A stretch of 34,132 nt of DNA, taken from assembly GCF_008801575.1 (NCBI RefSeq), contig NZ_VZPL01000049.1, positions 1 to 34,132 of the forward strand, given 5' to 3'. Within the stretch, counting starts at the first letter, position 1. Each line of letters begins with the position of its first letter. Shown piece after piece: positions 270-14,834 of the stretch. Origin of the DNA: Xanthomonas cissicola. Lineage in GTDB: Bacteria > Pseudomonadota > Gammaproteobacteria > Xanthomonadales > Xanthomonadaceae. The position numbers and the translations under genes were made by a program. The notes beneath the pieces were generated by a model, which worked only from the letters and a program-made list of their open reading frames with translations, had not been told where the DNA came from and did not search any database.

Positions 270-2198
270 TCATCGCAAGCGCGAGAACGCACCGATCCCT
301 GCGATCGCCAGCCGCTCGGCGGGCACGGCAGTTTCCGCGAACGACAGCCGCAGATAGCGGATCTGGCGGACTTCTGGGAAATTCAGCCGCTGGGTCGAGA
401 GCGCATAGGCGATGTTGGAGAGCTCGCCGGCGCCGGCCGGCTGCCAGTGTTGGCCATCTTCGCTGGTTTCGACGCGATAGCCCTTCGGCGGCGCCGCACC
501 GGTCATCACTGCGCGCGAGGGCGTGAGACTGAACCCAGCAACCTGACGCGACGCGCCGAGGTCGATGGTCGCCTGCACGGGATGGCCCGGCGTCGGTGCG
601 GGCGTGATCCAGATCGTGCTGGCATCGTCGTCGAGCAAGGTCTCCGCCCCTGGCGCGCTCGCCTCGACGATGCGCCAGCCGGCGGTGGACAGCACGTCCG
701 GTGCATTCGCCGTCGGCCGCGCGACCGGCACCGGCGCAACGGCGCGGAACAGCGCGAATTCGCTGATCGCCGGGCAGACCGGCGCCTCGAGCACGACCAG
801 GCGCACCCGGCGTGCGGCGATCGGGCGCTCCAGGCGCACGATCCGCTGTGCACCGATGCACTGCGCCTCGGCCAGCCGCCGCCATTGCCCATCGACCTCG
901 GCTTCGACCGCGAAGCGGGTAACGCGCACGCCCAGCGGCAGATACTCCCGCAACCGGATCAGGTCGAAGCTGTGCACCGTCGACAGTTCCAGCGTCAGCG
1001 TTGGCGTGGTGACCTCGTCCGGCGTGGACCAGTAGCTGTCCGGCTGGCGATCGAGCACGCGCGCCGGCTCGAACCCGGCACCGCGCGAGGCGCTGGCACT
1101 GGCCTTGGCGCCCTTGGCCAGGTCGATGGCGAAGCTGGCGCGGATCGCGTCGCCGAAACTCTGCAGCACCGCCACGTCGTGGTCGGGGATGCGGCCGCGT
1201 CGGTCGGGCGGCAGATTGAGGTTCATGTTGGTACCGCGCGCCACCGAGGTGTCGAAATAGCGCACCAGATTCTCCGGGCTCCGCACCTTGCCGTCTTCGT
1301 CGGCGTGATAGAACCAGCCCGGACGGATCGACGTATTGGTTTCGGCCGGCCACCACAGCGCTCCTCCGCGCACGCCGGAATTGCCGTTTTCCTGGGTGTA
1401 CGGCGCATTGGGCATCGTCGGCCAGGATGGATCGCCGGCGATGCCATCTTCGTTGCCGCCCCACCGGATATCGGCACCGAGCGGATCGAAGGTACATGCC
1501 ATCGGCTGATGCTGATGCACCAGCTCGATCATCCGCGGCCAGTTGTAGTACGCAGGCGCATCGATCTTGCGCGATTCGCGCGCCCCACCGTAATAGCCAT
1601 CGCCACCATTGGCGCCGTCGAACCAGAACTCGAACAGGTCGCCGTAACCTGTGCAGAGTTCGACGATCTGTTTGCGGAAATAGTCCAGATAGCCGGGGCG
1701 GCCATATTCTGCGTGGTTGCGATCCCAGGGGGAGAGATAGATGCCGAAGGCCAGGCCGCCGCGTCGACACGCCGCGGCCATCTCGCCGACGATGTCGCCC
1801 TTGCCGTTTTTGTAAGGCGAATTGCGGATGCAATGCTCGGTCAGGCGTGTCGGCCAAAGGCAGAATCCGTCGTGATGCTTGGCAGTGAAAATCAGCCCTT
1901 TCAGATTGCCGGCCTTCGCAGCAGCGACGATCTGATCGGCTGAAAAATCGCTAGGATCGAATTTGCGCGGATCCTCGTCGCCATAGCCCCATTCCTTATC
2001 GGTGAAGGTGTTCATCGCAAAATGCACGAAGGCGTATTGCTCCCACCGATGCCAGCGCAGCTGGCGCGGGCTGGGCACCGCACCCCACGGCGCCGGACCG
2101 TTGGCACGCGGCGTCTGCGCAATGCGCGCTGCCGACGCGCCGAAGCTGGCGGCAGCGGCCACCACACCTGTGGCAAGAAAGGTACGACGATCGATCAT
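270..2198 (-). CDS. Alpha-L-fucosidase, GH29, exported
   Basis: Predicted 642-residue glycosidase that releases alpha-L-fucose from glycans. The N-terminus has DRRTFLATG followed by an alanine-rich hydrophobic stretch, a probable Tat-type signal, so it likely acts in the periplasm or outside. The GH29 barrel follows: KHHDGF near residues 107-112 and FEFWFDG near 189-195, where Asp194 fits the family nucleophile. The region after about residue 360 looks like beta-sandwich, discoidin-type carbohydrate-binding modules. The start was chosen at 2198 because it begins the export signal and has GGAAG 8 nt upstream; the frame is open another 140 codons upstream without family-like sequence. A role in plant xyloglucan or N-glycan breakdown is inference from the genus. 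The gene lies alone between two IS sequences. Confidence 0.9.
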   Translation of the reverse strand: MIDRRTFLATGVVAAAASFGASAARIAQTPRANGPAPWGAVPSPRQLRWHRWEQYAFVHFAMNTFTDKEWGYGDEDPRKFDPSDFSADQIVAAAKAGNLKGLIFTAKHHDGFCLWPTRLTEHCIRNSPYKNGKGDIVGEMAAACRRGGLAFGIYLSPWDRNHAEYGRPGYLDYFRKQIVELCTGYGDLFEFWFDGANGGDGYYGGARESRKIDAPAYYNWPRMIELVHQHQPMACTFDPLGADIRWGGNEDGIAGDPSWPTMPNAPYTQENGNSGVRGGALWWPAETNTSIRPGWFYHADEDGKVRSPENLVRYFDTSVARGTNMNLNLPPDRRGRIPDHDVAVLQSFGDAIRASFAIDLAKGAKASASASRGAGFEPARVLDRQPDSYWSTPDEVTTPTLTLELSTVHSFDLIRLREYLPLGVRVTRFAVEAEVDGQWRRLAEAQCIGAQRIVRLERPIAARRVRLVVLEAPVCPAISEFALFRAVAPVPVARPTANAPDVLSTAGWRIVEASAPGAETLLDDDASTIWITPAPTPGHPVQATIDLGASRQVAGFSLTPSRAVMTGAAPPKGYRVETSEDGQHWQPAGAGELSNIAYALSTQRLNFPEVRQIRYLRLSFAETAVPAERLAIAGIGAFSRLR

Positions 2199-2585
2199 TG
2201 GCGACTTCCGACTTTGCACAAGTTTCGATCTTAGCTTTTCCAACGGCGAAGCGTCCTCCCACCAAGCCAAAAGCGGTTGTGCAAAGGACCGCGTGCGGGT
2301 TGGCCCCGGGGCGGATGGCGTTGGAGAGCGTGCGAAGCAAACCGCAGCCGTTCGCGGCTTGACGGCGGCCTGCCTCAGAACATTGATGCCTTCAGCCCTA
2401 TGGCATCCGCGGGAGGCGTCCCAATCTGCTCCTACAAGCCACCATGTACCGCCGAAAGCAAGACAGCGTGACGCTACCGGCGCTGCCGTTCCAGCTTGCC
2501 TGCCGTCCGAGGGTATTCGGTATCTTGGGTGGATGATGACCCCGCTGACCGTGATGGGAGCTTTCTGGGTCAGCTCGATGCTCAG
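2199..2585. other. Intergenic region upstream of the fucosidase
   Basis: 387 bp between the fucosidase start and the IS3 remnant. Both strands have open frames, but none has a recognisable domain, a good ribosome site or sensible composition. It should carry the fucosidase promoter; no convincing -35/-10 pair could be picked. Confidence 0.5.
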
Positions 2586-2647
2586 CGCGTAAGCTCCCCC
2601 GATCCGCAGACACCGCATAAGTAGATCTTTCTGGCATCTTTCCCAAG

Positions 2648-2767
2648 TCAGGAGGCAGGACGCTTACTCCACTCGTAGTAGCCGCTGGCCGATACCTTCA
2701 GGCACCGGCACATCAGCCGAATCGGAAACTCATCGCGGCAACGTTCGATCACCTGATACCTCAGGGT
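2648..2767 (-). pseudogene. IS3-family transposase OrfB, N-terminal fragment
   Basis: In the frame overlapping the end of orfA the minus strand reads TLRYQVIERCRDEFP and then RCLKVSASGYYEWSKR before a stop at 2648-2650. This is the typical start of IS3 OrfB, including the SxSGYYxW segment. The integrase core with the DDE residues is missing, so the fragment cannot catalyse transposition. In intact relatives OrfB is made as an OrfAB fusion by frameshifting at the end of orfA. Confidence 0.75.
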
Positions 2768-3048
2768 GATCCCTTTGCGAAGAACGTCGCCGCTTCTCGC
2801 AAAAAATCCCGTTCCTTCTTCACCCGCGCCAACTCGCGCTTGAGTCGAGCCAGCTCCTCGTCCCGAGGCGTGCCACTGCCGCCGAATGCGGCCGTCCCCG
2901 GGGTCTGCGCCTCGCGCTTCCAGCGGGTCAGCAGGGTGTCGCGAATCCCCAGCTCCCGGGCCACCTGGGCACAGCTGACGCCGGGCTGGCTGGCCTGCTC
3001 AACCGCGCCACGCTTGAACTCGGCAGTGAACTTCCTGCGCTTTGACAT
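2761..3048 (-). CDS. IS3-family transposase OrfA
   Basis: 95-residue protein starting MSKRRKFTAEFKRGAV. An N-terminal helix-turn-helix (residues about 8-50, with QVARELGI and a downstream TRWKRE) binds the IS ends. It is followed by a leucine-rich helix (about 65-90, LARLKRELARVKKERD) typical of OrfA dimerisation. The ATG at 3048 is preceded by GAGGAG; a GTG two codons upstream is possible. Length and layout match intact OrfA, but its partner orfB is destroyed, so it is at most a regulator of related copies. Confidence 0.8.
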   Translation of the reverse strand: MSKRRKFTAEFKRGAVEQASQPGVSCAQVARELGIRDTLLTRWKREAQTPGTAAFGGSGTPRDEELARLKRELARVKKERDFLREAATFFAKGSP

Positions 3049-4009
3049 GAACACTCCTCATGGCCTTGATCGGCCTTCTTGTAAGTGTCCGTGAAAACGG
3101 GGGTGAACCCAACGTCGGGATGTCCAAGAAGGTCATGATCTTCTCGGCTTGGCTGGCGGCGCGGAACAGGGTCTTGGGGTCATCGGCCAGAGCCTTCATC
3201 CAAGACTGCAAGTAGGCGGCGTGCTGATCTTCGTGCTCTTTGCCCAAGCCAATGCCCAAGCGCTCGGAAATGAAAAGGCTGGACAGCTCTGCAACCAGTT
3301 CCTCCTTCGCGTAATCCTGGCTGCCGAAACGGCCAGTTTGGTCTCGGTCAAGCCGATGCTTCGCGCCAGTCCAGTGGGACACCTCGTGAAGCAAAGTGGC
3401 CTGGTAGCTCACGTCGTCGCTGAAGGTGTGGTGCTTGGGCAGGTGGATTGAATCTGCGGCGATGGAGTAAAAGGCCCGGTTCCCGCCATCGTGGTGGATC
3501 TTCGGTTGGTGCCGATCCAGCAGCTCCCGAACCCGCAGGTTGCGGACCGTCTCGGGCATGACAAAGGGTGGCGGGGGCTCGGGCATGCCGTCGATCTGGC
3601 TGGCGTTGAACACCGTCGCAACGAAGACGGATGGGCCTTGGTAGCCCTTCTCTTCGCCTTCAGCGGGAGGCTGCTCGCCCTCCTGGGCCTTGCCCGTCTT
3701 CGAGAAATCCCAGTAAGCGATCTGGTGGCCCATTTCCCCTCGGCGCACCTGTCCGCCAACGGCCAGCGCTTGCTTATACGTCAGCCACCGGCTGTCCTCG
3801 TAGCCGTTGACCAGCTGCGCCCCTCTCAGGATCAGGGTGTTCGACCCGCGATACTGCTTGCCCGTGGTGGGATTCCAGGGCCCGTTGATGGAGCCGTTCG
3901 GCGGGGCCTCGCGATCATTCCATGGCTGGCGCCAGGGGATGGTTCCCTGCTGCATGAGGGCGAGCATGCGCTCGGCGGTGGCTTGGATGAGATCGGAATA
4001 CTTGGACAT
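2999..4009 (-). CDS. ArdC-like antirestriction protein, 3' end replaced by IS sequence
   Basis: Residues 1 to about 299 are an ArdC/TraC-N-type protein: an N-terminal ssDNA-binding domain (start MSKYSDLIQATAERML, then GTIPWRQPW and GSNTLIL) and a C-terminal zincin-like domain with the metal motif HEVSHW near residue 215. ArdC proteins protect incoming DNA from host restriction. The native frame runs to TFLDIPTL at about 3112 and then enters the IS3 end, adding a foreign tail of about 37 residues up to a stop at 2999. Known ArdC proteins are about 300 residues, so little may be lost and activity is possible. The ATG at 4009 was chosen (GAGG upstream); a TTG at 4024 is an alternative. It is the last gene of the element's minus-strand series. 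Confidence 0.8.
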   Translation of the reverse strand: MSKYSDLIQATAERMLALMQQGTIPWRQPWNDREAPPNGSINGPWNPTTGKQYRGSNTLILRGAQLVNGYEDSRWLTYKQALAVGGQVRRGEMGHQIAYWDFSKTGKAQEGEQPPAEGEEKGYQGPSVFVATVFNASQIDGMPEPPPPFVMPETVRNLRVRELLDRHQPKIHHDGGNRAFYSIAADSIHLPKHHTFSDDVSYQATLLHEVSHWTGAKHRLDRDQTGRFGSQDYAKEELVAELSSLFISERLGIGLGKEHEDQHAAYLQSWMKALADDPKTLFRAASQAEKIMTFLDIPTLGSPPFSRTLTRRPIKAMRSVHVKAQEVHCRVQAWRG

Positions 4010-4076
4010 GGGGTGGTGCCTCAAATCTTTTTCAAACGCCTGCGCCTCTTAAGCAGGTACTTGTGGGTGGTTGGGT

Positions 4077-4322
4077 TTAGAACTCGAAATGCAGATCGAC
4101 GGATTTGCGCTGGTCCAGCAGACGACGCACCAAGTCGGCGATGTCGTTTTCGCTGCGTAGCCCCTCGTCTCCTGGCTTGCCTTGCCTGATGTGCAAACCA
4201 AATGCGGAGCGAATCAGGAGGAACTGGGGATCAAACTCGGGGCCCTCGGGGCCTTCCAGATTGGACAGACCGATGGCCTCCTCGTGGAAAGCGTCTTCGG
4301 GGAATGGGTGGGGCGATGGCAT
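4077..4322 (-). CDS. Small acidic protein of unknown function
   Basis: 81 residues, start MPSPHPFPEDAF, proline- and glutamate-rich N-terminus, then RSAFGLHIRQGKPG and a C-terminal amphipathic helix DIADLVRRLLDQRK ending in LHFEF. I do not recognise a family. The ATG at 4322 has AAGGAG about 10 nt upstream; a TTG 12 codons further up is less likely. It lies 71 bp after the helicase gene and 67 bp before the ArdC-like gene on the same strand, so it is probably co-transcribed with them. Its low pI would suit a protein that binds a DNA-binding partner, but this is speculation. Confidence 0.6.
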   Translation of the reverse strand: MPSPHPFPEDAFHEEAIGLSNLEGPEGPEFDPQFLLIRSAFGLHIRQGKPGDEGLRSENDIADLVRRLLDQRKSVDLHFEF

Positions 4323-4393
4323 GGGTGGGGGCTCCTTTGCTGGGATACCCCTTTGCAATACCGCGGCCTGGGGAAAAGTAAAGGCCTGCGCCC

Positions 4394-6274
4394 TTACTTT
4401 CCTGCCGCTTTCTTTTTAGCGCCCTCGGCCTTGCGGCATTCCCGTGCCTCCGTCTCGCGTTTGTCCTGGCACACCCAACCTGCAGCCTCCTTCGCCTGCC
4501 TTGCGCGGGTCTCGCCGCGTTCAGCCTGAACCTGCTCATACGGCGTGGTCGCGCTGAACCCAAACATCTCGCGGATCTCCGATGGTGTTTCCTCCCAGTC
4601 CTTTTTTAACAGGGCTTCAGCCCGAGCCACGCTGGCCTGGTTGGATTCATCGTTGGCGGCGCGCATGGCGCTTACCTCGGCCTGCCGCTGCTCGGGGGTC
4701 ATAGAGGCCAAGCGCTTCTGGGCGGCTTCCTCCGCACGCTCCTGGTCAGTTTGCTCCCCCTGCCAGATGCAGAGGAAGCAATCGGCCTGCTCTCCGTTGA
4801 TCCGGCGATTGGAGGGCCGCCCGCGCAGGTGCCCGGCGGTCTTCAGACCGCGGGTGAACTGGCGTTGCGAGAGGATTTCCTCGGCCTCAAAGCCCTTCTT
4901 TTGGCACCAGGACACGTAGCGGGTGTGCATGGCCTTGATGCTGCTCCACTGGCCGCTGCCTGCGGCTTCGCCAAACGAAACTCGGTCCGAATGCACCCAA
5001 CTGGCGATGGAATCGGCGTTGTGGATCACGGCTTGTTTGTAAGCACGAGCAGCCTCCGGCAGCTCGTGGTCGGCCATGAAACGGCCGCGTGCCACGACCC
5101 GGCGGGCGCCTTCCAGCATCCAATCGAGGAACAGCTGTCCTTCCTCGGCAAGCAGCTTTTTGTGGAAGTCTGGGATCCGCTCGGACTCGGGGATCGCGTG
5201 TGCCCATTCCACGATGGAGAGGCGTCGGGCCACCCCGCCAGACTTGTCACGGAAGAACGGCGCGGAGTTCGACGTGATGATCCACTTCGCTTTGGAGTGG
5301 TAGTTCAAAACGGACAAGTGTTTGCGATTGATCCCGATGCCGTTGCCACTGACCAGGGTCTTGAACGTGCCTTCCTTCCAGCGGTCGCATTCCACCTCAT
5401 CGACCAAGATGAGGTTCGCGCCGATGATGTGCTCCAGCGCGAACACGTCGCTCAACGTCGCCAGATCCAGGCGGGCTACCTTGTTGTGCATGCCTTCCAC
5501 CGCCTCGGCCAGGCTGCTTTTGCCGGAGCCCGCCGCGCCGTGCCACCAGGCTGCCATCTGATAGCTGCCCGGAAGCAACGTCATGCCGCACTGTTCCTGC
5601 ACCAAGTCCCGGACGCCTTCGTCAGGCAGAGCCCGGGCCAGAAACGTCGACAGCAGGCTGTCGGCAGGCAGGGGCTTAAGGGTGTAAGCCTGGCCATGCG
5701 CGGCGTTGGTGGTGATGTTGATCGCGTGAGTCATGCCATAGCGCGGTGCTGGGGCCAGGGCGTGGATGCTGTCTTTGTTGATCTCCAGGTAAGCGTCCTG
5801 GCAAGGCACCAGCGAACGGCCTTCCAGTTGCGGCAAGGGCGCTTGCTGGCCCAACCGGGTGCGTGCGTAGGCCCAGAGCCCGGCGGCGGTCTTGTCGCAA
5901 GCCTTGGCGGGGATGTTGGTGTCCAGCCAATCGGACGCCAGGCCCTGCCCCTTGCCGCCATGGACCATGGACCAGTGGTTGGTCTCCCAACGATAGATCA
6001 GCGTGGACTGGGTGGCCCACTCGTCGCGGACGCTGGCCCAGAGGTTGCCGTCCAGGCCGAGCTGGAGGTGGCGGGCGTAGAGGAAGTCCAGGCTCTCCGG
6101 GCGCAGCTCGCCTTTGTTGAGCTTGGCCTGTTTGTGCCGATCCAGTGCCCGATGCTCCACTTTCAGGTTGCTGGAGAACTCCTCGCGATTCCTCTCCCAG
6201 TGCTTTTCGATCAGGAAATGAACGTTTGCGGGCTTGACGGCCGACGGATCTTCGGCAACATTAAGTTTAGACAT
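4394..6274 (-). CDS. P4/D5-type replicative helicase (superfamily 3)
   Basis: 626-residue replication protein. A superfamily 3 ATPase domain is clear: Walker A GAAGSGKS at residues 246-253, Walker B LILVDEVE near 288-295, sensor WIITSN near 331-336 and a likely arginine finger in GGVARR near 346-351. The first 230 residues would be the D5_N-type region; no archaeo-eukaryotic or TOPRIM primase motif was recognised there. The C-terminal 130 residues are highly charged and probably helical, with a likely DNA-binding part. Such proteins initiate replication of phages, satellites and plasmids by binding origin iterons and unwinding DNA. The ATG at 6274 has GGAG about 10 nt upstream; an upstream in-frame extension lacks family-like sequence. 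The iteron array lies 5' of this gene, beyond the small Arc-like gene. Confidence 0.87.
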   Translation of the reverse strand: MSKLNVAEDPSAVKPANVHFLIEKHWERNREEFSSNLKVEHRALDRHKQAKLNKGELRPESLDFLYARHLQLGLDGNLWASVRDEWATQSTLIYRWETNHWSMVHGGKGQGLASDWLDTNIPAKACDKTAAGLWAYARTRLGQQAPLPQLEGRSLVPCQDAYLEINKDSIHALAPAPRYGMTHAINITTNAAHGQAYTLKPLPADSLLSTFLARALPDEGVRDLVQEQCGMTLLPGSYQMAAWWHGAAGSGKSSLAEAVEGMHNKVARLDLATLSDVFALEHIIGANLILVDEVECDRWKEGTFKTLVSGNGIGINRKHLSVLNYHSKAKWIITSNSAPFFRDKSGGVARRLSIVEWAHAIPESERIPDFHKKLLAEEGQLFLDWMLEGARRVVARGRFMADHELPEAARAYKQAVIHNADSIASWVHSDRVSFGEAAGSGQWSSIKAMHTRYVSWCQKKGFEAEEILSQRQFTRGLKTAGHLRGRPSNRRINGEQADCFLCIWQGEQTDQERAEEAAQKRLASMTPEQRQAEVSAMRAANDESNQASVARAEALLKKDWEETPSEIREMFGFSATTPYEQVQAERGETRARQAKEAAGWVCQDKRETEARECRKAEGAKKKAAGK

Positions 6275-6332
6275 TGTAGTTAGCTCCAACGAACCCTCGC
6301 CCTGCCAGGCGGGGGTTTCGTATTTGTGGGGG

Positions 6333-6500
6333 TTAGGCAACTTGCGGCAAGGCGTTGTCGAGGATGCGCCGCAGCTTTTCACTGGGAGAAATCCCCGAAC
6401 GCTTGGCGTCGGCTTTCAGCCGTTCAATCAGCGCCCGTTCCATTCGAGCATTGAACGGGTCTTTCCGAATCGAGGACTGAGGGGTTTTCTGCGGCTGCAT
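6333..6500 (-). CDS. Small Arc/ribbon-helix-helix-like protein
   Basis: 55 residues, start MQPQKTPQSSIRKDPFNARM. The core DPFNARMERALIERLKADAK followed by RSGISPSEKLRRILDNAL has the strand-helix-helix pattern of Arc/MetJ-type DNA binders. The ATG at 6500 has CGGAGA 6 nt upstream; an ATG 11 codons further up is possible. It sits between the iteron array and the helicase gene, 58 bp from the latter, a common place for a copy-number or promoter repressor. The repressor role is inference. Confidence 0.7.
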   Translation of the reverse strand: MQPQKTPQSSIRKDPFNARMERALIERLKADAKRSGISPSEKLRRILDNALPQVA

Positions 6501-6579
6501 GGAATCTCCGTATTGCTTGTGTAATACATCCAAGAAAGCAGGTTTCCGAACAACGTCAAGCCCAAAGCGAAAAGAAAGT

Positions 6580-6940
6580 TTTTAGTTGCTGGTTAACTCT
6601 GCTGCTGGTTTTCTGCTTTTTCTTAAACCAGCACCCAAACCAGCAACTAAAAACACTTCAAGTGATTGATATTTATTATTTTTGTTCAAAAAATAAGCTA
6701 ACTGCTGGCTTGCTGGTTTAAAATTTAAATTTTACGCTCGCACAACGTCTCAACGAAGATTGATATTTTTGAACCTCTTCACTCTTTTTCATCACTGAAG
6801 AAAAGTCGAATAAATTAACCAGCAAACCAGCAGAAGTGGGAAGGCCTTGCCCTGTATGGCTTTAGCTGCTGGTTTGGCTGCTGGTTTACGGCTTGAGCGT
6901 TAACCAGCAGAGACGTTAACCAGCAGAAAACGCTAACAAC
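6580..6940. other. Putative replication origin of the element
   Basis: A 600-bp stretch without a convincing gene (6501-7103) holds a segment far more AT-rich than its surroundings. 6655-6740 and 6760-6816 contain TTTATTATTTTTG and AAATTTAAATTTT runs and would melt easily. Iterons flank both AT-rich cores. Together with the neighbouring superfamily 3 helicase this fits an origin of replication with a DNA-unwinding element. No DnaA box matching TTATCCACA was seen. The origin call is inference from layout. Confidence 0.65.
6587..6925. repeat. Iteron array AACCAGCA, 12 copies in both orientations
   Basis: The 8-mer AACCAGCA or its complement starts at 6587, 6603, 6626, 6638, 6711, 6817, 6825, 6867, 6879, 6902 and 6918, with a one-mismatch copy at 6703. 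Copies come in close pairs, spaced by 8, 8, 12, 12, 16 and 16 bp. The last pair is embedded in a 14-bp direct repeat CGTTAACCAGCAGA at 6898 and 6914. This matches the layout of replication iterons bound by plasmid or P4-like initiators. Confidence 0.9.
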
Positions 6941-7053
6941 ATGGATACGGATGGATTCTTTTTCGCATGGTTTTACCAGTGAGTGGCAGGAAATAAGCGC
7001 CCGTTACCCGCGGGAGAAACAAAAGCAAAAGCAGCTCAAGGCAAAAGCGCCTG

Positions 7054-7084
7054 GGAGGCAAATGCGAGGCCTCCGGCCTTTTTT
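7054..7084 (+). terminator. Rho-independent terminator, plus-strand direction
   Basis: GGAGGC at 7054-7059 pairs with GCCTCC at 7069-7074, and a nested AGGCC-TCC-GGCCT hairpin at 7067-7079 runs straight into six T (7079-7084). The T run is on the plus strand, yet every gene around is on the minus strand. It would end a plus-strand transcript coming from the iteron region; no plus-strand gene was found there. Confidence 0.65.
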
Positions 7085-7103
7085 CACTCACCAAGCGTCG
7101 CCA

Positions 7104-7781
7104 TCACTCGTCGTTTGCAGCCTCGCAAGCTCCGGCCACCATGCCTACGCGGGCCATGTCCAGGTAGCCACCCGGGATCTGCCCTTCGCTAACCGCCAGG
7201 CGAAGCCGGCGTGCCGCCTCCTCCCCATAAGCCACGAACACCGGGCCGCAGGGCGGCGCGTCCCCAGGTGTTCCGTCCTGACGGCAGAACTTCAGCCTCC
7301 CGCGCTGGAACACAATGGCGCTCGTGGCAGGGTGGTTGAGCACGTGGTCCTGGAACCAGGCCGTGTCGGTCCTGGCAAACACCAGTGCGATGCCACCGCT
7401 CGGGTGGGTGGCCAGCTTCTGCATCCAGGCATTCTGTCCGCGGCCGAACGGCGGGTTCATGAAAACGAAGGCGTCTGCGGGCCAAGGCGTCGCCAAGCCG
7501 TCCTCAATGGGCGTCAGCATCCGACCCGCCGTGGGCCAAGGCATGTCTTCCGGCGTGCACGGATCGAGGTCAAACGGACCCAACCCCGTGAAGCATTCTC
7601 GCGGGCTCCCCCAGATCAGCTCCGGTGGCGTGAGCCAGGTGTCCGTGGTCTGCACTGCCGGCAGGCGGTCGTAACCGACCATAGCGGCGGCAAGCTTGGT
7701 GGATCGAGGGATGGACGTGGTCTTGCGGTCCTTGGGCAAACACAAAGCGGTGGTCTCGGGGGTGTGGGCAACAGCATTCAT
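7104..7781 (-). CDS. Phage-type DNA N6-adenine methyltransferase
   Basis: 225 residues. The order of motifs fits the phage Dam family: DTWLTPPELIWG (about 47-58), FDLDPCTP (70-77) and the catalytic FMNPPFGRG (108-116, the NPPF box), then LVFARTDTAWFQ and QRGRLKFC. It would methylate adenine in DNA using S-adenosylmethionine. No restriction endonuclease lies nearby, so it is a solitary methylase, plausibly protecting the element or marking its origin. The ATG at 7781 has CCGGAGA 7 nt upstream, much like the leader of the small Arc-like gene; a longer frame exists upstream but without such a site. Confidence 0.87.
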   Translation of the reverse strand: MNAVAHTPETTALCLPKDRKTTSIPRSTKLAAAMVGYDRLPAVQTTDTWLTPPELIWGSPRECFTGLGPFDLDPCTPEDMPWPTAGRMLTPIEDGLATPWPADAFVFMNPPFGRGQNAWMQKLATHPSGGIALVFARTDTAWFQDHVLNHPATSAIVFQRGRLKFCRQDGTPGDAPPCGPVFVAYGEEAARRLRLAVSEGQIPGGYLDMARVGMVAGACEAANDE

Positions 7782-7908
7782 GGCAATCTCCGGTGGTTGA
7801 AGTTTTCTGAGCAAAGCTTCGCCATCACGGCCTGGGAGCCGCGCTCTGCGAAAGGGGTTGAGGGATTGGGCCAAGCTTGGCCCGGACTACTTCAGGCGTG
7901 TCAGGCCA

Positions 7909-8160
7909 TCAGTCGTTGGCGGCGTCCTGGACGTCAAGGAAGCGCTCCAGGGTGGCGATCTGCAGGGTGAGAACCTGGTGGGCTTGAAGCGCCGTCATGT
8001 CCCCGCAGGCCACCATGACCGACTGGGCAATGCCCGCCTCGAACTGGGCCAAGGCCTGAGGAAGCGCGTCGGCGAGGACGTCAGCCAGGGCCTGAGGCGT
8101 GAGCGCGGCCCGGTGATGACGAGCGGCGACGGGGTCGAGCTGGAGGATGATAGGAAGCAT
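7909..8160 (-). CDS. Small alanine-rich protein of unknown function
   Basis: 83 residues from the ATG at 8160 (94 if the ATG at 8193 is used; neither has a strong ribosome site). Sequence starts MLPIILQLDPVAARHHR and continues with helical alanine- and leucine-rich segments (ALADVLADALPQALAQFEAG, then LQIATLERFLDVQDA). It looks all-helical and possibly oligomeric. No family recognised. It lies 127 bp before the methyltransferase gene, downstream of the recombinase operon terminator, so it probably begins a second transcription unit. Confidence 0.6.
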   Translation of the reverse strand: MLPIILQLDPVAARHHRAALTPQALADVLADALPQALAQFEAGIAQSVMVACGDMTALQAHQVLTLQIATLERFLDVQDAAND

Positions 8161-8221
8161 GTCGGCGGGTCCGTGTTGGTGTGGGAATAGCATCCTTTGA
8201 ACCGCTAATCGCGTCTGGCGG

Positions 8222-8241
8222 AAAGGGGCGGTTGCCCCTTT
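8222..8241. other. Perfect 8-bp hairpin between transcription units
   Basis: AAAGGGGC at 8222-8229, loop GGTT, GCCCCTTT at 8234-8241. There is no T run after it on either strand, so it is a weak terminator candidate. It lies just upstream of the small gene at 7909-8160 and may be an operator or a 5' leader structure. Confidence 0.5.
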
Positions 8242-8258
8242 GGCTTGACGACGGGCAC

Positions 8259-8284
8259 AAAAAAGCCCCGGACGTGAGCCGGGG
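8259..8284 (-). terminator. Terminator of the recombinase operon
   Basis: On the minus strand CCCCGG (8284-8279) and CCGGGG (8271-8266) form a stem with a 7-nt loop, followed by C and six T (complement of A 8259-8264). It lies 115 bp after the stop of the last gene of the recombinase operon. Confidence 0.8.
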
Positions 8285-8399
8285 TCTTGGATAGGTCGAC
8301 CTGGCGTCGGCGGAAGCCGGCGCCTCCCTGCCTTTTCTTCCCCTCCGCTCTTCGGCGGCGAGCAGCCGCCGCACGTTCGCTCCAGCGATCGCCTCCACC

Positions 8400-9335
8400 T
8401 TAGAACCGAAACGGTGGCCGCTCGATGGGAGGCCCTGCGGGCGGAAGGGTCACGTCCAGGATCGCGCCGCGCACCTCACTGACCTGCATCTCTAACGCTC
8501 GGCTTTCTTCGGCCCATTGCTCCACCAACGCTTTGTGGGCGTCCTGGGCATCCACCTTGTCCTCCTCCGGTGTGAGATGGGGGATCACGTTCTGGACACG
8601 CTGCAAGTGCTCTTGGAGCTCACTTCTAATGCCTTCCAAAGCTCCTATGTATTGGCTCACCCACTCATTTTTGAGTGTCAGGTCGACCCAAGGCAACTTG
8701 AACGCCTCGGGCAGTGTGGCCTGCTGAAGCATCACGATCCCTCGGCTATCTTCCCGCAGAGCGCCGCCTTTCGCTCGGAACAAATCCAGGAGGGCCTCAC
8801 GCTCCTCCGCGCTCCATCCCGCCAGGTTCAGCGACGAAACCCTGCCCTCGATCAACGTGATGTTGACCTTGCCCTCCTTAAGGACCTTGAATCGCGCGCT
8901 TGGAGGCATTGGGGCCTTCCGTCCTAGCACGTCGCCATCTTCTCGGCTTTCCCGCCACCGTCGGACACGGGGGTGGGCATCGGCCCATTCCAGCAACCGG
9001 GATATGGGAACGGCGGTGTGCGTGCCGTCGTCTACCAACAGGGGACCCGTCGGACTGTCGCTCTTGGCCAATTCGCGGAACGCCTTCTGCGATAGGTTAA
9101 GCAGCCCCGCCGCTTCTGCGGACGTCCAAGGCCTCGACTCGCTCGGACGCGTGCGTCCGGCTCTAGCGGCCGCGCGTGCCTGGTGATCAGCGACTGCTTC
9201 TTTCTCCACATCCCGCTTTAGGCGCGCCCATGACACGCCCTTGCCGCTCATGAACTCAGGGTTCCCGGGGGCGTAGGTCTCGCGGTAACGCTCGATCAGT
9301 TTGACGAGGACTTCTTGCTTGGAATCAAGAGACAT
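8400..9335 (-). CDS. HTH-type accessory protein, FRF tail (third gene of recombinase operon)
   Basis: 311 residues. Residues about 69-118 (WTSAEAAGLLNLSQKAFREL, then VPISRLLEWADAHP) resemble a winged, MerR/excisionase-like helix-turn-helix. The middle (about 155-215) is a mixed alpha/beta stretch including KVNITLIEGRV and GIVMLQQATLP, and 225-290 is probably coiled-coil. The protein ends PPIERPPFRF. The second gene of the operon has the same order (HTH, coiled-coil, short proline-rich tail ending PFRF). I know no named family. Placement behind the recombinase suggests a directionality or accessory factor; this is inference. Start ATG at 9335 has only a weak ribosome site. Confidence 0.72.
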   Translation of the reverse strand: MSLDSKQEVLVKLIERYRETYAPGNPEFMSGKGVSWARLKRDVEKEAVADHQARAAARAGRTRPSESRPWTSAEAAGLLNLSQKAFRELAKSDSPTGPLLVDDGTHTAVPISRLLEWADAHPRVRRWRESREDGDVLGRKAPMPPSARFKVLKEGKVNITLIEGRVSSLNLAGWSAEEREALLDLFRAKGGALREDSRGIVMLQQATLPEAFKLPWVDLTLKNEWVSQYIGALEGIRSELQEHLQRVQNVIPHLTPEEDKVDAQDAHKALVEQWAEESRALEMQVSEVRGAILDVTLPPAGPPIERPPFRF

Positions 9336-9373
9336 GGGGGCTTGCCACCAAGAGGAAACCTGATGGTAGGCGA

Positions 9374-10138
9374 TCAGAACCGGAACGGCTTGCGCGTGCT
9401 CTCTGGCGCAGTGGGCGGCGGCAGCCTGTCTTCCAGCCCTCTAGCGCGGTCTTGGTTGCGTGCGTGGTCTCGGGCTCCCAGGAAGGCAGCTAGCGCATCC
9501 TTCATGGCGTCATCGAAGGGATCGCGCGCCTCAACACTGATCCACGGCTCCAACAACGCGTCGGCCAAAGGCGCATCCCAAATCTCACCGTCGGCCAGGG
9601 CCCGGTCCAACGTGCCCTCGTCCACTGTGAGCACGTGCCCGGCGATCAGGCCTTCCACTACGGCCCAGGCGTGGGAGGTTGCCCAGTCCTCGTGCGACGT
9701 CACCAAGGTGGCGTAGCGTCCAGCGTTCTTGCGCAGCTTTTCCAGAGCCAACTTGGCCTCATGGATCTGTCTCTCCAGTTCCAGCTCCCGCTGCTGTTGA
9801 TTCAGCCGCTCCAACTCCGAACTCAACCGGCGCTCTTTCGCAGTCCTGCCCTGTTGACCATCTTTCCAGGCCACGAGCTCTTCGTAATCGTATTTCACCC
9901 GCTGGTTGGGGCCGTCCAGGGCACTGCCGGACGCTTTTTGAAAACGTGGGCCCATGGGCGGGATTCGGCGGCGCCACTCGCCCAGCGTGTCGGCATGGAT
10001 GCTCAGGAACAACGCTGCAGCCTTGGCGGACACCATCCCGCCCCCCGCGCTTTTGGCTCGGATCAACTCCCCATTCCAGGCCGCTTCGGCTTTGGCACGG
10101 AAAGCCTCTTCTGTGCGAACCGGTTCAATCCTCGTCAT
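9374..10138 (-). CDS. HTH-type accessory protein, FRF tail (second gene of recombinase operon)
   Basis: 254 residues, start [18 protein letters not shown]. Residues about 35-92 (VSAKAAALFLSIHADTLGEW, then YDYEELVAWKDG) form a probable helix-turn-helix with wing, as in MerR/excisionase-like proteins. Residues 98-140 are a strong coiled-coil rich in Glu, Leu and Gln. The C-terminal part has WATSHAWAVVEGLIAGHVLT and ends ESTRKPFRF. The ATG at 10138 lies inside the end of the recombinase gene (14-bp overlap), which points to translational coupling. An in-frame extension upstream overlaps the recombinase further and is less likely. Function unknown; a factor for integration or excision is the best guess from context. 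Confidence 0.75.
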   Translation of the reverse strand: MTRIEPVRTEEAFRAKAEAAWNGELIRAKSAGGGMVSAKAAALFLSIHADTLGEWRRRIPPMGPRFQKASGSALDGPNQRVKYDYEELVAWKDGQQGRTAKERRLSSELERLNQQQRELELERQIHEAKLALEKLRKNAGRYATLVTSHEDWATSHAWAVVEGLIAGHVLTVDEGTLDRALADGEIWDAPLADALLEPWISVEARDPFDDAMKDALAAFLGARDHARNQDRARGLEDRLPPPTAPESTRKPFRF

Positions 10139-12035
10139 CGAACGCCACCTTCTGATTTCTTGCGGCAAAGATCGTAGCTGGCGGGTCGTTGACCTCGTCA
10201 AGCCGCGGCTTGTCCGTGCCTTTCCAGCGGTTCCACACCCTCGGGCTGCTGGCCATCATGTGCTCCTCTACGAGGGCAAACGCCTCCCGTAAAACAGCCC
10301 ATTCCTGCTCCGTGTAGATCGCATCGGTGGAAGCGGAGTCCTTGTCCTTGACCCTGTGGTGAAGCATTTGCGATACGACCCGAGCTTTGCCGCTGTGGAG
10401 CCGTTCTGCGTAGCGCCCCAACGTGCGGCGCAAATCGTGAGGGGTCAGGCCGATGTCCACCTCCTCGCGCAAATCGATCAGCCCGGCGTCGCGGCGCACG
10501 TTGGCGATGATGGACTTGCTGTCGGAGTAGTGACCGGATTTGCTGCGCCGGGACCTGGCCGGAAAGACGAAACGGGTTCGATCCAGCGCGTGCTCGGTGT
10601 TGGCAACCGCGGCCTGAAGGGTTTCAATCAGGGCCGCGTGTCCGCCCCGCTTGATTGCTGTGGTGAGCGCGGCCTTGGCGGCCTCCAGCCCTTTCTTTGC
10701 CCCGCCATCGTCCTCGCGCTCGTTGAAGCGTCGCTGCAGGACGCGCTCGGCAAAATAGGTGACAGGCAAGAACCGCTGCTCTTTGTTCTTGGTTTCAAAC
10801 AGGTAAACCTGGCTGCCCGCGCGCTTGGTGGTTGGGTTGATCTCCCCGGGGGCCGCTAGCCAAACCCAAGACACCAGTTCCTGCGACAGCTCACCCGGGG
10901 TGCAGCGGTCATACCACCGCAACGGCGCCGCTTCGCTACGCCTGGTTCCCCAAAGCAAGGTCAGCAGCAGGTAGTCTGCACCGGCCGCGTTTCGCCCGCC
11001 TTGCTCGTCCCGCCGTGCTGCAATGGCTTTGAGGACCTTGGGCAGGGTTTTGTCATCCAAGGGATTGCGAACCTCGGCGCGGCTGTAGTGGCTGCGCAGT
11101 TCGTGGGCTTCGCGGAGCATGTCCCGAGTATGGATAACGACCAGGGGGTTGTAGAAGTGGCGTTGGGGCCGGCCGAACTGGTGATCGCGCGCTTTCTCCT
11201 CTTCGATGATGAAGTCAACCGCTCGCCTGGCGTCCGAGAACGTGTGCTCGGTTGAAGAAAGCCCGGCTGCTCGGACCCGCTGGATGTATTTGCCGGTGAT
11301 GCCCAGCGCTTCCAACTGGGGAACGGTGAGCTTGGCCCAGTCCTCTACCTCCGCCAGCTTGTTGCTTATTTCCCGGGGAATGCGGTTAGACAATTGCATG
11401 GAGCTGATCCGGCAAGCGTCAAAGGCTTGCTGGATGACCTCCAGCTGGAGCTGACTCAGGGTCTTGTCCGACAAGGCAACAGTGGGCCGTGAAAGGCGGG
11501 ACAAACTGTCGCGCACCGCATCTACGCTGACCGGTTTGATCTTCTTGTTCTTTGCGCGGGAATCCAGGTGCGCGATGTAACGCTCCATCCCCTCCCGCAA
11601 GGTTAAGTCCCCGAACTCTTTTTCCGATTCCCTCTCCTGGGTTTCCAGTAGCTGCCGCCGTTTGACGTGGACGGGGTTCTTCCCGGTTTGCTTGAGCAGC
11701 GCTAGGTGCTCTCGGCAAACCTCCCTCGCCTCGTCCAGAGGCATATCCGCGACGTTGCCCAGGGTGAAGCGGATTGGCTTGCCATCGGGCCCGCGCTTCT
11801 GCCCCACGTAAGTGGTCATTGTGGAACCGACGCGGAAGCCAAACCCGGAGGGCGCCCCCGGCCCACCGTCCAACACCAAGTAGGGCCTGCCCTCCGACCG
11901 GGGAGCGAGGCGGACCTTGCCCTGCGCGTCCCATGCAGGGGCCTTGGTCAAGGACAAGGCCAGGACTTGGTTGTAGGTCAGATTAAACTTGAGCGATCCA
12001 GCTCTCTTGCTTGCGCTTGTCGCGGTCTTCGTCAT
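10125..12035 (-). CDS. Tyrosine recombinase / integrase of the element
   Basis: 636 residues, large for the family. The N-terminal part (about 50-125, with [34 protein letters not shown]) resembles the arm-binding domain of P4-type integrases. A long middle region precedes the catalytic domain. Catalytic residues visible: Arg365 in WGTRRSEA, likely Lys416 in ETKNKEQRF, His533 and Arg536 in TPHDLRRT, His559 in QMLHHR and nucleophile Tyr574 in TDAIYTEQ. All are present, so it should be active. The ATG at 12035 follows TAGGGGGGATGCA, a strong purine-rich site; an upstream in-frame ATG at 12077 is less likely. First gene of a three-gene operon. Confidence 0.9.
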
Positions 12036-12056
12036 TGCATCCCCCCTACACTTCAT

Positions 12057-12149
12057 TGCTACATTAGCGCACGCCATCGCCCGTTTCTACGCCCCCGTTG
12101 CTACATTGATTTGACGTCATTTCAGCCACGCCGCTACTCAATTGCTACA
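12057..12149. repeat. Direct repeats TTGCTACA(TT) in the recombinase-mutS gap
   Basis: TTGCTACATT occurs at 12057 and 12098, and TTGCTACA at 12142, spaced 41 and 44 bp, with looser relatives (CTACTCA, TTACTCG) between 12131 and 12190. Placement directly in front of the recombinase, spacing of about four helical turns and the arm-binding-like domain fit arm-type sites of an attachment region. The first copy lies just upstream of the recombinase start, so binding there could also autoregulate it. Confidence 0.6.
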
Positions 12150-12233
12150 AAAAACACCGTCACTCGTCGTTACTCGCCCCTACTCACCGCCATTGCTCAA
12201 CCACACAATAATTATCAAGTGACTGATTTAAAA

Positions 12234-14834
12234 GTGATAACCAGTGACACCAAGGATGTGAAGGAACACACGCCTGCCATGAAGCAATTCTTCGCAGCCA
12301 AATCGGACTACCCCGATCTGCTGCTGTTCTTCCGCATGGGCGATTTCTACGAGCTGTTCTACGACGACGCGCGCAAGGCTGCGCGGCTGCTCGACATCAC
12401 CCTGACCCAGCGCGGCAGCTCCGGCGGTGCGCCGATTCCCATGGCCGGGGTGCCGGTGCATGCGTATGAAGGCTATCTGGCGCGCTTGGTGGCACTGGGC
12501 GAGTCGGTGGCGATCTGCGAGCAGATCGGCGACCCGGCGCTGGCCAAGGGACTGGTCGAGCGCAAGGTCGTGCGCATCGTCACGCCTGGCACGGTCACCG
12601 ACGAGGCGCTGCTGGACGAACGTCGCGACACCTTGTTGATGGCGATCTCGCGCAGCAAGCAAGGTTACGGCCTGGCCTGGGCCGATCTGGCCGGCGGCCG
12701 CTTCTTGGTCAATGAAGTGGACAGCGCCGATGCGCTGGAAGCGGAAATCGCGCGTCTGGAACCTGCCGAACTGTTGGTCCCCGACGAAGACAACTGGCCC
12801 GAATTCCTGCGCGGGCGCATCGGCGTGCGGCGCCGGCCGCCGTGGTTGTTCGATGCCGACAGCGGGCGCCGCCAGCTGCTGGCGTTCTTCAAACTGCACG
12901 ATCTGTCCGGCTTCGGCATCGACGACAAACCTTGCGCCACGGCGGCCGCCGGCGCATTGCTCGGGTATGTCGAGGAGACCCAGAAACAGCGCTTGCCGCA
13001 CCTGACCTCGATCGCGATGGAAGTGGCCAGCGAGGCCATCTCGATGAACGCGGCCACGCGCCGGCATCTGGAGTTGGACACCCGCGTCGATGGCGATACC
13101 CGCAACACCTTGCTCGGCGTACTGGACAGCACCGTCACGCCGATGGGTGGGCGTCTGCTCCGGCGCTGGCTGCACCGTCCGCTGCGCCTGCGCGATGTGC
13201 TGGTGCAGCGCCACCATGCGGTCGGCACGTTGATCGATGCAGCTGCCGATGCCGATCTGCGCGAAGCCTTCCGTGCGCTCGGCGATCTGGAACGCATCCT
13301 CACCCGCGTGGCCTTGCGCTCGGCGCGGCCGCGCGATTTTTCCACCTTGCGCGATGGCCTGGCGCTGCTGCCGAAGGTGCGCGCAATCCTGGCACCGTTG
13401 GATTCGCCGCGCCTGCAGGCGCTGCATGCCGAACTTGGCGAGCACGATGCCACCGCGCATCTGTTGATCAGCGCAGTGGCCGAGACGCCGCCGCTCAAGC
13501 TCAGCGACGGCGGCGTCATCGCCACCGGCTACGACGCCGATCTGGATGAGCTGCGTCGGTTGTCCACCAATGCCGATCAATTCTTGATCGACCTGGAACA
13601 ACGCGAGCGCGCCAGCAGCGGCATCGCCACGCTCAAGGTCGGCTACAACCGCGTGCACGGCTACTACATCGAGATCAGCAAGGGCCAGGCGGAGAAAGCC
13701 CCGTTGCACTACAGCCGCCGGCAGACGTTGACCAACGCCGAGCGCTACATCACCGAAGAACTCAAGAGTTTCGAAGACAAGGTGCTGTCCGCGCGCGAGC
13801 GTTCGCTGTCGCGCGAAAAACTGTTGTACGAAGGCCTGCTCGATGCGCTTGGCACCGAGCTGGAAGGTCTCAAGCGCTGCGCGGGTGCACTCAGCGAACT
13901 GGATGTCCTGGCCGGCTTTGCCGAGCGCGCGCAGGCACTGGATTGGTCGCAGCCGGAACTGGACAGCGCCCCCGGCCTGCGCATCGAACGCGGCCGTCAC
14001 CCGGTCGTGGAGGCGGTACGCGAGCAACCGTTCGAGCCCAACGATCTGGACCTGCACAGCGATCGGCGCATGCTGGTGATCACCGGCCCGAACATGGGCG
14101 GTAAATCGACCTACATGCGGCAGAACGCCCTGATCGTGCTGTTGGCGCATATCGGCAGCTACGTGCCGGCCAGCCGTGCGGTGATCGGGCCGATCGACCG
14201 CATCCTCACCCGCATCGGCGCCGGCGACGACTTGGCGCGCGGGCAGTCCACCTTCATGGTGGAAATGGCCGAAACCAGCTACATCCTGCATCACGCCACT
14301 CCGCAATCGCTGGTGCTGATGGACGAGATCGGCCGTGGCACCTCCACCTACGATGGCCTGGCACTGGCCGATGCAGTCGCGCGCCATCTGGCGCAGACCA
14401 ATCGCTGCTACACGCTGTTTGCCACGCATTATTTCGAGCTCACCGCACTGGCCGACGCATCGCATGCCGGTGGCGCCAGCGGTATCGCCAACGTGCATCT
14501 GGACGCGGTCGAACACGGCGAGCGTCTGGTGTTCATGCACGCAGTGAAAGATGGCCCGGCCAATCGCAGTTTCGGCCTGCAGGTGGCCGCACTTGCCGGG
14601 CTGCCCAAGGCGGCGGTAACGCAGGCGCGCCGGCGCCTGGCGGAACTGGAACAACGCGGCGGCGAAAGCCACAGCGCGCAGATGGCGCCCACCGCGCTGG
14701 ATGCGCCGCAACAATTCGGACTGTTCACCGCACCCTCCTCCGCTGCGCAGGAAGCCTTGCAAGCGCTCGACCCGGATGAGCTCACGCCCAAGCAGGCGCT
14801 GGAGGCGCTGTATCGGTTGAAGGCGTTACTTTGA
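12234..14834 (+). CDS. mutS: DNA mismatch repair protein MutS
   Basis: Recognises mispairs and starts mismatch repair with MutL. The mismatch-probing Phe-X-Glu is in [10 protein letters not shown]. The ATPase has Walker [21 protein letters not shown] and Walker [17 protein letters not shown], and the C-terminus ends [17 protein letters not shown]; full length for the family. The start is uncertain. The conserved block [10 protein letters not shown] is preceded by codons that do not look like a typical N-terminus. Candidates are GTG 12219, GTG 12234 (866 residues), GTG 12258 and ATG 12279 (851 residues); only the last two have AAGGA nearby, at poor spacing. The frame is open far upstream into the element. 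The 5' flank is element or junction DNA, so promoter and start may have been replaced on integration. Confidence 0.93.

What the first reader, a model, noticed from the sequence alone, without database searches (positions are those of the whole stretch)
3112..12279. Satellite-like element seated at the 5' side of mutS: possible mutator switch
Seen: a recombinase-accessory-methylase-iteron-helicase-antirestriction set ends directly before the mutS reading frame, with no other gene between and about 200 bp from recombinase start to mutS start. Known: SpyCI islands of Streptococcus pyogenes integrate at the 5' end of mutL and their excision changes mismatch repair. Inference: integration here separates mutS from its native promoter and possibly its native start, so excision or element replication could change mutation rate in Xanthomonas.
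Basis: partly seen in the sequence, partly recalled or inferred. Interest (0 to 1): 0.75.

Follow-up and report, generated by a model that had tools for sequence, protein, structure and literature searches.

The report
Mobile islands re-cap the mutS gene
A family of mobile DNA islands in Xanthomonas and its relatives inserts inside the start of the DNA-repair gene mutS and supplies a replacement start for it, so the gene probably keeps working under borrowed control; in this genome the island seems to have lost one end, which would make the swap permanent.

Summary
In detail: an integrase/Dam/iteron/helicase/ArdC island (3112-12279) abuts mutS. Comparison shows more: the island ends inside mutS. 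Recombination at codons M-K-Q (ATGAAGCAA) replaces everything upstream, including start codon and about 20 codons, with an element-borne in-frame 'cap'. In six relatives the displaced mutS start lies at the island's far end, 12-37 kb away. Relatives of this integrase lie divergently beside mutS in 30 of 35 family genomes that carry a match (11 genera), and in one genome of another family. One cap type was acquired four times independently on the Xanthomonas mutS tree (p-AU 2e-75); element-like caps persist without elements in 25 of 31 Xanthomonas genomes compared. HTPL codons of the caps show purifying selection (pN/pS 0.14). So separation of mutS from its native start is supported; a mutator switch is not. 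Frame conservation suggests the elements keep mutS on, as published for dusA and prfC elements. Here the left end is lost in IS debris, so normal excision should be impossible if the contig is right. No promoter stood out in consensus scans; MutS level and mutation rate could not be tested. I found no report of this mutS site in the open library searched.

The parts
12219..14834 (+). mutS reading frame with element-borne start (GTG 12219), 871 aa
   Evidence: MutS domains; mutS1 model 1102.9 bits against cut-off 641.7, model starts at residue 17; start position inferred from alignment of caps
12219..12281 (+). element-borne cap of mut[22 protein letters not shown]
   Evidence: differs from all other 30 genus genomes compared while the body is 88-96% identical; nearest cap with upstream DNA in L066 and G379, 71% each
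12279..12287 (+). inferred attachment core ATGAAGCAA (codons M-K-Q)
   Evidence: displaced mutS starts of six relatives end here; exact ATGAAGCA(A/G) in three of six, one base off in the other three
12036..12218 (.). element end between integrase and mutS; repeated GCTAC-type stretches, possible arm sites; must hold the mutS promoter unless it lies inside the integrase gene
   Evidence: sequence; alignment with class C ends; no promoter found on the plus strand
10125..12035 (-). mutS-specific tyrosine recombinase, 636 aa, open frame
   Evidence: alignment A1
9374..10138 (-). accessory protein (254 aa) that follows the integrase in most elements; possible directionality factor (guess)
   Evidence: in 17 of 24 stretches; relatives; weak PHROG excisionase match; model too poor to use
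8400..9335 (-). second accessory protein, 311 aa, unknown; relative in L066
7909..8193 (-). 94-aa ORF, unknown
   Evidence: no family
7104..7874 (-). phage-type DNA N-6-adenine methyltransferase
   Evidence: PF05869, phrog_111
6580..6930 (.). iteron-like CTGCTGGTTWA repeats in both orientations
6333..6533 (-). small protein, weakly ribbon-helix-helix
   Evidence: RHH_1 E 0.0006, just below cut-off
4394..6382 (-). P4-type primase/helicase (DUF5906)
4077..4358 (-). 93-aa ORF, unknown
   Evidence: no family
3112..4024 (-). ArdC antirestriction gene, cut at 3112
   Evidence: match to the relative in L066 stops at 3111
2588..3111 (.). IS debris (IS3-type orfA 2761-3054) in place of the element's left end
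   Evidence: 2984-3111 at 99-100% in 5 other contigs, 2588-2655 in 12 other places; orfA
270..2366 (-). alpha-L-fucosidase, the gene that lies upstream of mutS in relatives; left host flank

Best explanation
This is the right part of an integrative island whose recombinase uses codons Met-Lys-Gln of mutS (ATGAAGCAA) as its attachment site. Integration removes the host's own promoter, start codon and first codons from mutS and replaces them with an element-borne cap that keeps the frame and the HTPxM motif. mutS is then expressed from element DNA. Shown by comparison: the position, the integrase-mutS pairing, the displaced host start at the other end in relatives, in-frame caps, repeated independent acquisition, selection on cap codons. 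Inferred: that the element carries a working mutS promoter, that the cap is translated, and that MutS activity is kept. In this genome the left end is replaced by IS debris, so the element should be locked in and mutS depends on the foreign 5' end.
For: Upstream of EHTPxMKQ the genus genomes fall into unlike cap classes over a conserved body. Displaced mutS starts at the far end in G034, G005 and G191, G282, G328, G238; an IS-interrupted one in G019, whose empty relative G018 is about 95.7% identical over 11.4 kb on the far side. Integrase beside mutS in 30 of 35 genomes with a match and in G840 of another family. Type-C caps 93% identical on unlike mutS bodies, four changes, one clade rejected with p-AU 2.4e-75. 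HTPL pN/pS 0.14 over 28 carrier loci. Precedent shown for dusA, stated for prfC (PMC8409611, passages).
Against: No sigma-70-like promoter on the mutS strand above shuffles in the window or in 27 carrier loci. Displaced start not found in 16 of 20 family loci with up to 40 kb fetched, nor in the window or own genome (the last without a positive control). Matches in G032, G003 and G295 are fragments not next to mutS. Integrases of G034, G005 and G019 hold stops, so activity is unproven for the Xanthomonas carriers with both ends. The contig crosses repeated IS ends, so the lost left end could be a join error.
Confidence: 0.82

Rival explanations
1. Mutator switch: integration lowers or stops mutS expression and excision restores it, so the element toggles mutation rate as SpyCI does for mutL.
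For: Native promoter and start are displaced; no promoter seen in the element end; SpyCI precedent (PMC3430984, passages); the dusA island lowers dusA expression (PMC8409611, passages).
Against: In-frame caps with a start codon in 28 of 28 carrier loci (G328 has its start further out); selection on cap codons; element-like caps kept after loss of the element; no displaced start found in this genome.
Confidence: 0.12
2. mutS is translated from ATG 12279; the cap is not made, and the element simply ends before the gene.
For: ATG at 12279 is present in all 28 carrier loci; no strong ribosome-binding site is obvious before GTG 12219 (by eye).
Against: HTPxM upstream of it is conserved down to E. 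coli MutS and inside the curated MutS model, which starts at H; third positions vary while H, T and P do not.
Confidence: 0.05
3. No mobile exchange: the tails of MutS simply diverge fast and the integrase genes are old neighbours inherited with mutS.
For: N-terminal tails of MutS lie outside the curated model.
Against: Nearly identical caps on distant mutS bodies; two copies of the mutS start in six carriers; unlike cargo between elements.
Confidence: 0.01

Closest known systems
IMEVchUSA3 and other dusA-specific islands (PMC8409611, passages read)
   Different: Target dusA, not mutS; there expression was measured; no relation of the integrases was tested here
SXT in prfC (stated in PMC8409611 passages; Hochhut and Waldor 1999 not read)
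   Different: A large conjugative element; target prfC
SpyCI islands of Streptococcus pyogenes in mutL (PMC3430984, passages; others seen as listing)
   Same: Island at the 5' end of a mismatch-repair gene
   Different: SpyCI cuts mutL off from the mutS promoter and causes a mutator state; here the frame is rebuilt by an element-borne cap. One SpyCI strain is rescued by a promoter inside a decayed integrase gene
GInts (PMC5385486; abstract, outline, part 1 of 6 and passages)
   Same: Tyrosine-recombinase islands with variable cargo at the 5' end of one gene
   Different: GInts have three integrases plus GinD in an operon; this family has one long integrase
P4-type satellites (recalled)
   Same: Integrase plus P4-type primase/helicase in the window's element
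   Different: No relative in phage or viral collections; many relatives of the integrase sit on islands without that helicase

Membership tests
5'-end-swapping integrative elements (dusA/prfC type; a way of working, not a lineage) | Integration inside the 5' coding end of a core gene, host 5' end displaced to the other side | tested here: met
   Six relatives with displaced start; in the window itself only the right junction exists
5'-end-swapping integrative elements (dusA/prfC type; a way of working, not a lineage) | Reading frame restored with a new N-terminus | tested here: met
   28 of 28 carrier loci (G328 start at -87)
5'-end-swapping integrative elements (dusA/prfC type; a way of working, not a lineage) | Element supplies a working promoter | tested here: inconclusive
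   Consensus scans not above shuffles; expression not testable here
SpyCI-type mismatch-repair switch | Island at the 5' end of a mismatch-repair gene | tested here: met
SpyCI-type mismatch-repair switch | Gene silenced while integrated, restored by growth-dependent excision | not testable with these tools
   Needs RNA and mutation-rate data; in-frame caps speak against silencing
SpyCI-type mismatch-repair switch | Both attachment ends present so that excision can occur | tested here: not met
   For the window copy: no left end found. Some relatives do have both ends
GInt | Operon of three integrases plus ginD | tested here: not met
   One integrase; the next two gene products have no integrase family match
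P4-type phage satellite | P4-type primase/helicase | tested here: inconclusive
   primase_Cterm 98.4 bits, below cut-off 108.7; PHROG primase matches
P4-type phage satellite | Relatives among phages or viral contigs; packaging functions | tested here: not met
   Integrase: no match in phages or viral contigs. Packaging functions were not tested on their own

The most novel reading that the evidence does not exclude
The start of mutS is a standing exchange port in the Xanthomonadaceae: islands repeatedly swap in their own promoter-plus-cap, some caps are kept for good after the island is lost (most of Xanthomonas), and each swap can reset MutS level and with it the mutation and homologous-recombination rate of the lineage, possibly to the advantage of an island that must spread between divergent hosts.
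Probability: 0.3. Interest if true: 0.85.

Novelty: new variant of a known kind. Interest (0 to 1): 0.63.

Why it matters
mutS sets the mutation rate and the barrier to recombination with foreign DNA. An integrase family that specialises in this gene and rewrites its 5' end would mean that control of mismatch repair in a large bacterial family is repeatedly borrowed from mobile DNA. It also offers natural matched pairs (G018 empty, G019 occupied) in which the effect on mutation rate can be asked directly.

Tried and rejected
Left attachment site in the window: patterns for the mutS start found only the one at 12264; a class-A start probe found nothing in the own genome (no positive control, so weak). 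Left part of the element elsewhere in the own genome: only the ArdC piece at 3111-3334. Promoter in the element end: one promoter-like site on the other strand, none on the mutS strand; own scan of 27 loci, mean 7.56 against 7.78 in shuffles. A shared motif near the cap start: 11 of 27 by the pattern used, not pursued. Structure of the accessory protein: mean pLDDT 59, not searched. Names of hosts: the genome-contig scan with the single protein gave one locus, so hosts of the relatives are unnamed; plasmids and phages gave none. The upstream comparison used a wrong anchor for G033 and was rebuilt. The group table leaves ungrouped rows out; one search replaces it. The long/short count takes the most upstream in-frame start from -75 to -24, so it counts some short caps as long (for instance G117 and G091).
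Full report
What is in the window. mutS lies on the plus strand and the element on the minus strand, divergent from it. From mutS leftwards: integrase (636 aa from 12035), accessory proteins of 254 and 311 aa, a 94-aa ORF, a phage-type Dam methylase, iteron-like CTGCTGGTTWA repeats, a weakly RHH-like protein, a P4-type primase/helicase, a 93-aa ORF and ArdC. ArdC breaks off at 3112. Beyond that is IS debris whose ends recur in other contigs of the genome, then the alpha-L-fucosidase gene. The closest element found, L066 (from a 13.3-kb contig labelled Opitutae MAG; integrase 85%), has the same gene order with an extra methylase-like ORF, a longer ArdC and a further large ORF (ankyrin-like by my reading, not from a call). 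In the own genome its left part matches only the ArdC piece that ends at 3111.

The 5' end of mutS is exchanged. Of 35 genus genomes searched, 34 have mutS. I compared the 5' ends of 31 of these 34, those for which loci were held. Over about 1 kb the body is 88-96% identical to the window, but upstream of EHTPxMKQ the sequences fall into unlike classes: the window's own GTG cap; another GTG cap shared by G005, G011, G019 and G034; TTG caps in 25 (one, G027, with a frameshift); a short ATG cap in G033. Matches to the window's integrase occur in 9 of the 35; in 7 (the window, G034, G005, G019, G013, G023, G002) they lie within about 500 bp of mutS, in 2 (G032, G003) the matched fragment lies elsewhere. 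A profile search of the 1.5 kb upstream adds decayed traces in G003 and G015, and weakly in G001.

Displaced starts. A search of the upstream stretches of 21 genomes (window included) for second copies of the mutS 5' end found them at -12.2 kb in G034 and -17.2 kb in G005, each running into element DNA right after ATGAAG(A/C)AAT, and an IS-interrupted one at -6.2 kb in G019. G018, without the element, is about 95.7% identical to G019 over 11.4 kb on the far side. Of 20 family loci for which up to 40 kb were fetched, a displaced start was found in G191 (-30.9 kb), G282 (-37.0), G328 (-25.7) and G238 (-25.0), and not in 16. In G191 the displaced start is itself of element type, which suggests successive integrations. 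The core is ATGAAGCA(A/G), codons M-K-Q, exact in three of the six and one base off in the other three.

The integrase family is specific for mutS. Of 395 family genomes, 35 have a match. Loci of 24 genomes outside the genus were held: 23 have mutS divergently adjacent, 1 (G295, a fragment) does not. With the 7 of the genus this makes 30 of 35, in 11 genera by the labels; G032, G003 and G295 are not adjacent, and G055 and G116 were not looked at. Identity to the window's integrase goes down to about 29%. One genome of another family of the order, G840, also has the pair (9 of 250 order genomes matched). Of 369 class genomes only two, both of the same family, matched at 1e-30. No match in plasmids, phages or viral contigs.

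Caps are kept as protein. In 28 carrier loci (fragments of integrase included) 26 have a start codon between -75 and -48, one (G277) at -39, and one (G328) only further out (ATG at -87). Loci of other genera without a trace: 33 long, 25 short, 0 none; Fisher p 1e-4, only a guide, because species are related and the rule counts some short caps as long. H, T and P are the same residues in 28 of 28 while their third positions vary; pN/pS over HTPL is 0.14. The curated MutS model begins at H of HTP and E. coli MutS aligns from about there, so the exchanged tail lies largely outside the conserved protein. Cap DNA of 27 carriers averages 46% GC, against 60% in 59 loci without an adjacent integrase and 63% in the mutS body.

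Independent acquisition. On a tree of 997 columns of mutS downstream of the core (31 genus genomes, 2 outgroups) the type-C cap of G005, G011, G019 and G034 needs 4 changes, all cap types in the genus 6, and one clade for the four is rejected (p-AU 2.4e-75). Cap plus upstream DNA is 93% identical among those four, but 52% between swapped and unswapped genomes (bodies 94%; shuffled sequence 42%, sd 15).

Fossil caps. Of 26 short-cap control loci, sorted by eye does (G198). Of 30 long-cap loci of other genera (one, G063, with a decayed integrase trace), 18 exceed all shuffles, 4 are reached by one shuffle and 8 by more; four loci (G256, G321, G202, G042) were in neither list. So element-like caps seem to persist after loss of the element. 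The direction is open: elements may have captured a host cap instead, and most best matches are to G239 and G282 of one other genus, so old common descent is not excluded.

Cargo differs. By clustering of ORFs from 24 stretches only the integrase (22 of 24) and the 254-aa accessory protein (17 of 24) are common; the P4-type helicase occurs in 10 and the ArdC cluster in 7, the window's cut ArdC not being clustered. G034 carries a MobA/MobL relaxase, with relatives by clustering in G191 and G282. G328 has type I and G238 type III-like restriction genes, G282 a C5 DNA methylase. These look like mobilisable or satellite-like islands rather than prophages (inference).

Mechanism and verdict. The best reading is integration with re-capping, as shown by experiment for dusA and stated for prfC in PMC8409611 (passages read). 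In that paper dusA expression stayed but was significantly lower, so an effect of a swap on MutS level is plausible. The mutator-switch reading keeps about 12%. The promoter is not shown. In the window the missing left end should prevent excision by the normal route if the contig is right; it crosses repeated IS ends, so a join error is not excluded. Literature: the listings of five full-text searches showed no paper on this mutS site; of the papers listed there I opened PMC2704930, PMC5385486 and PMC3430984, in part. The library lacks most subscription journals.

Noticed in passing
L056 (G033:C94), 12844-13221: A 378-bp piece of mutS (90% identical) lies between the fucosidase gene and the full mutS, about 5.4 kb upstream of the latter; G033 is also the one genus genome with a short ATG cap. 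Looks like an older rearrangement or replacement of mutS.
   Followed up: partly
L057 (G031:C1), 7004-7122: A 119-bp piece of mutS (87%) about 9 kb upstream of the full gene.
   Followed up: no
L003 (G027), mutS cap: The TTG cap has one A fewer in an A-run than its relatives, which breaks the frame before MKQ. Possibly a sequencing error (90% completeness in 3 contigs), possibly a slippage site.
   Followed up: no
L066 (CALNBE010000297.1): The contig is labelled uncultured Opitutae but carries the mutS start and element of a Xanthomonas-like bacterium; probably a binning error.
   Followed up: no
G191, -30873 from mutS (L144): The displaced mutS start at the far end is itself of element type, almost the same as the present cap: successive or tandem integrations.
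   Followed up: no
interval between fucosidase and mutS, L046-L065: The interval differs greatly in length and content between Xanthomonas genomes, from under 1 kb to more than 15 kb; a hotspot of insertion and deletion.
   Followed up: partly
mutS cap starts, L066-L090: Unlike caps share a GACTGATnnnAAA-like stretch around the start codon, possibly a protein-binding site inside the coding cap; 11 of 27 by a strict pattern.
   Followed up: partly
L036 (G032) and L037 (G003): Fragments of the integrase lie away from mutS, perhaps scattered remains of elements.
   Followed up: no
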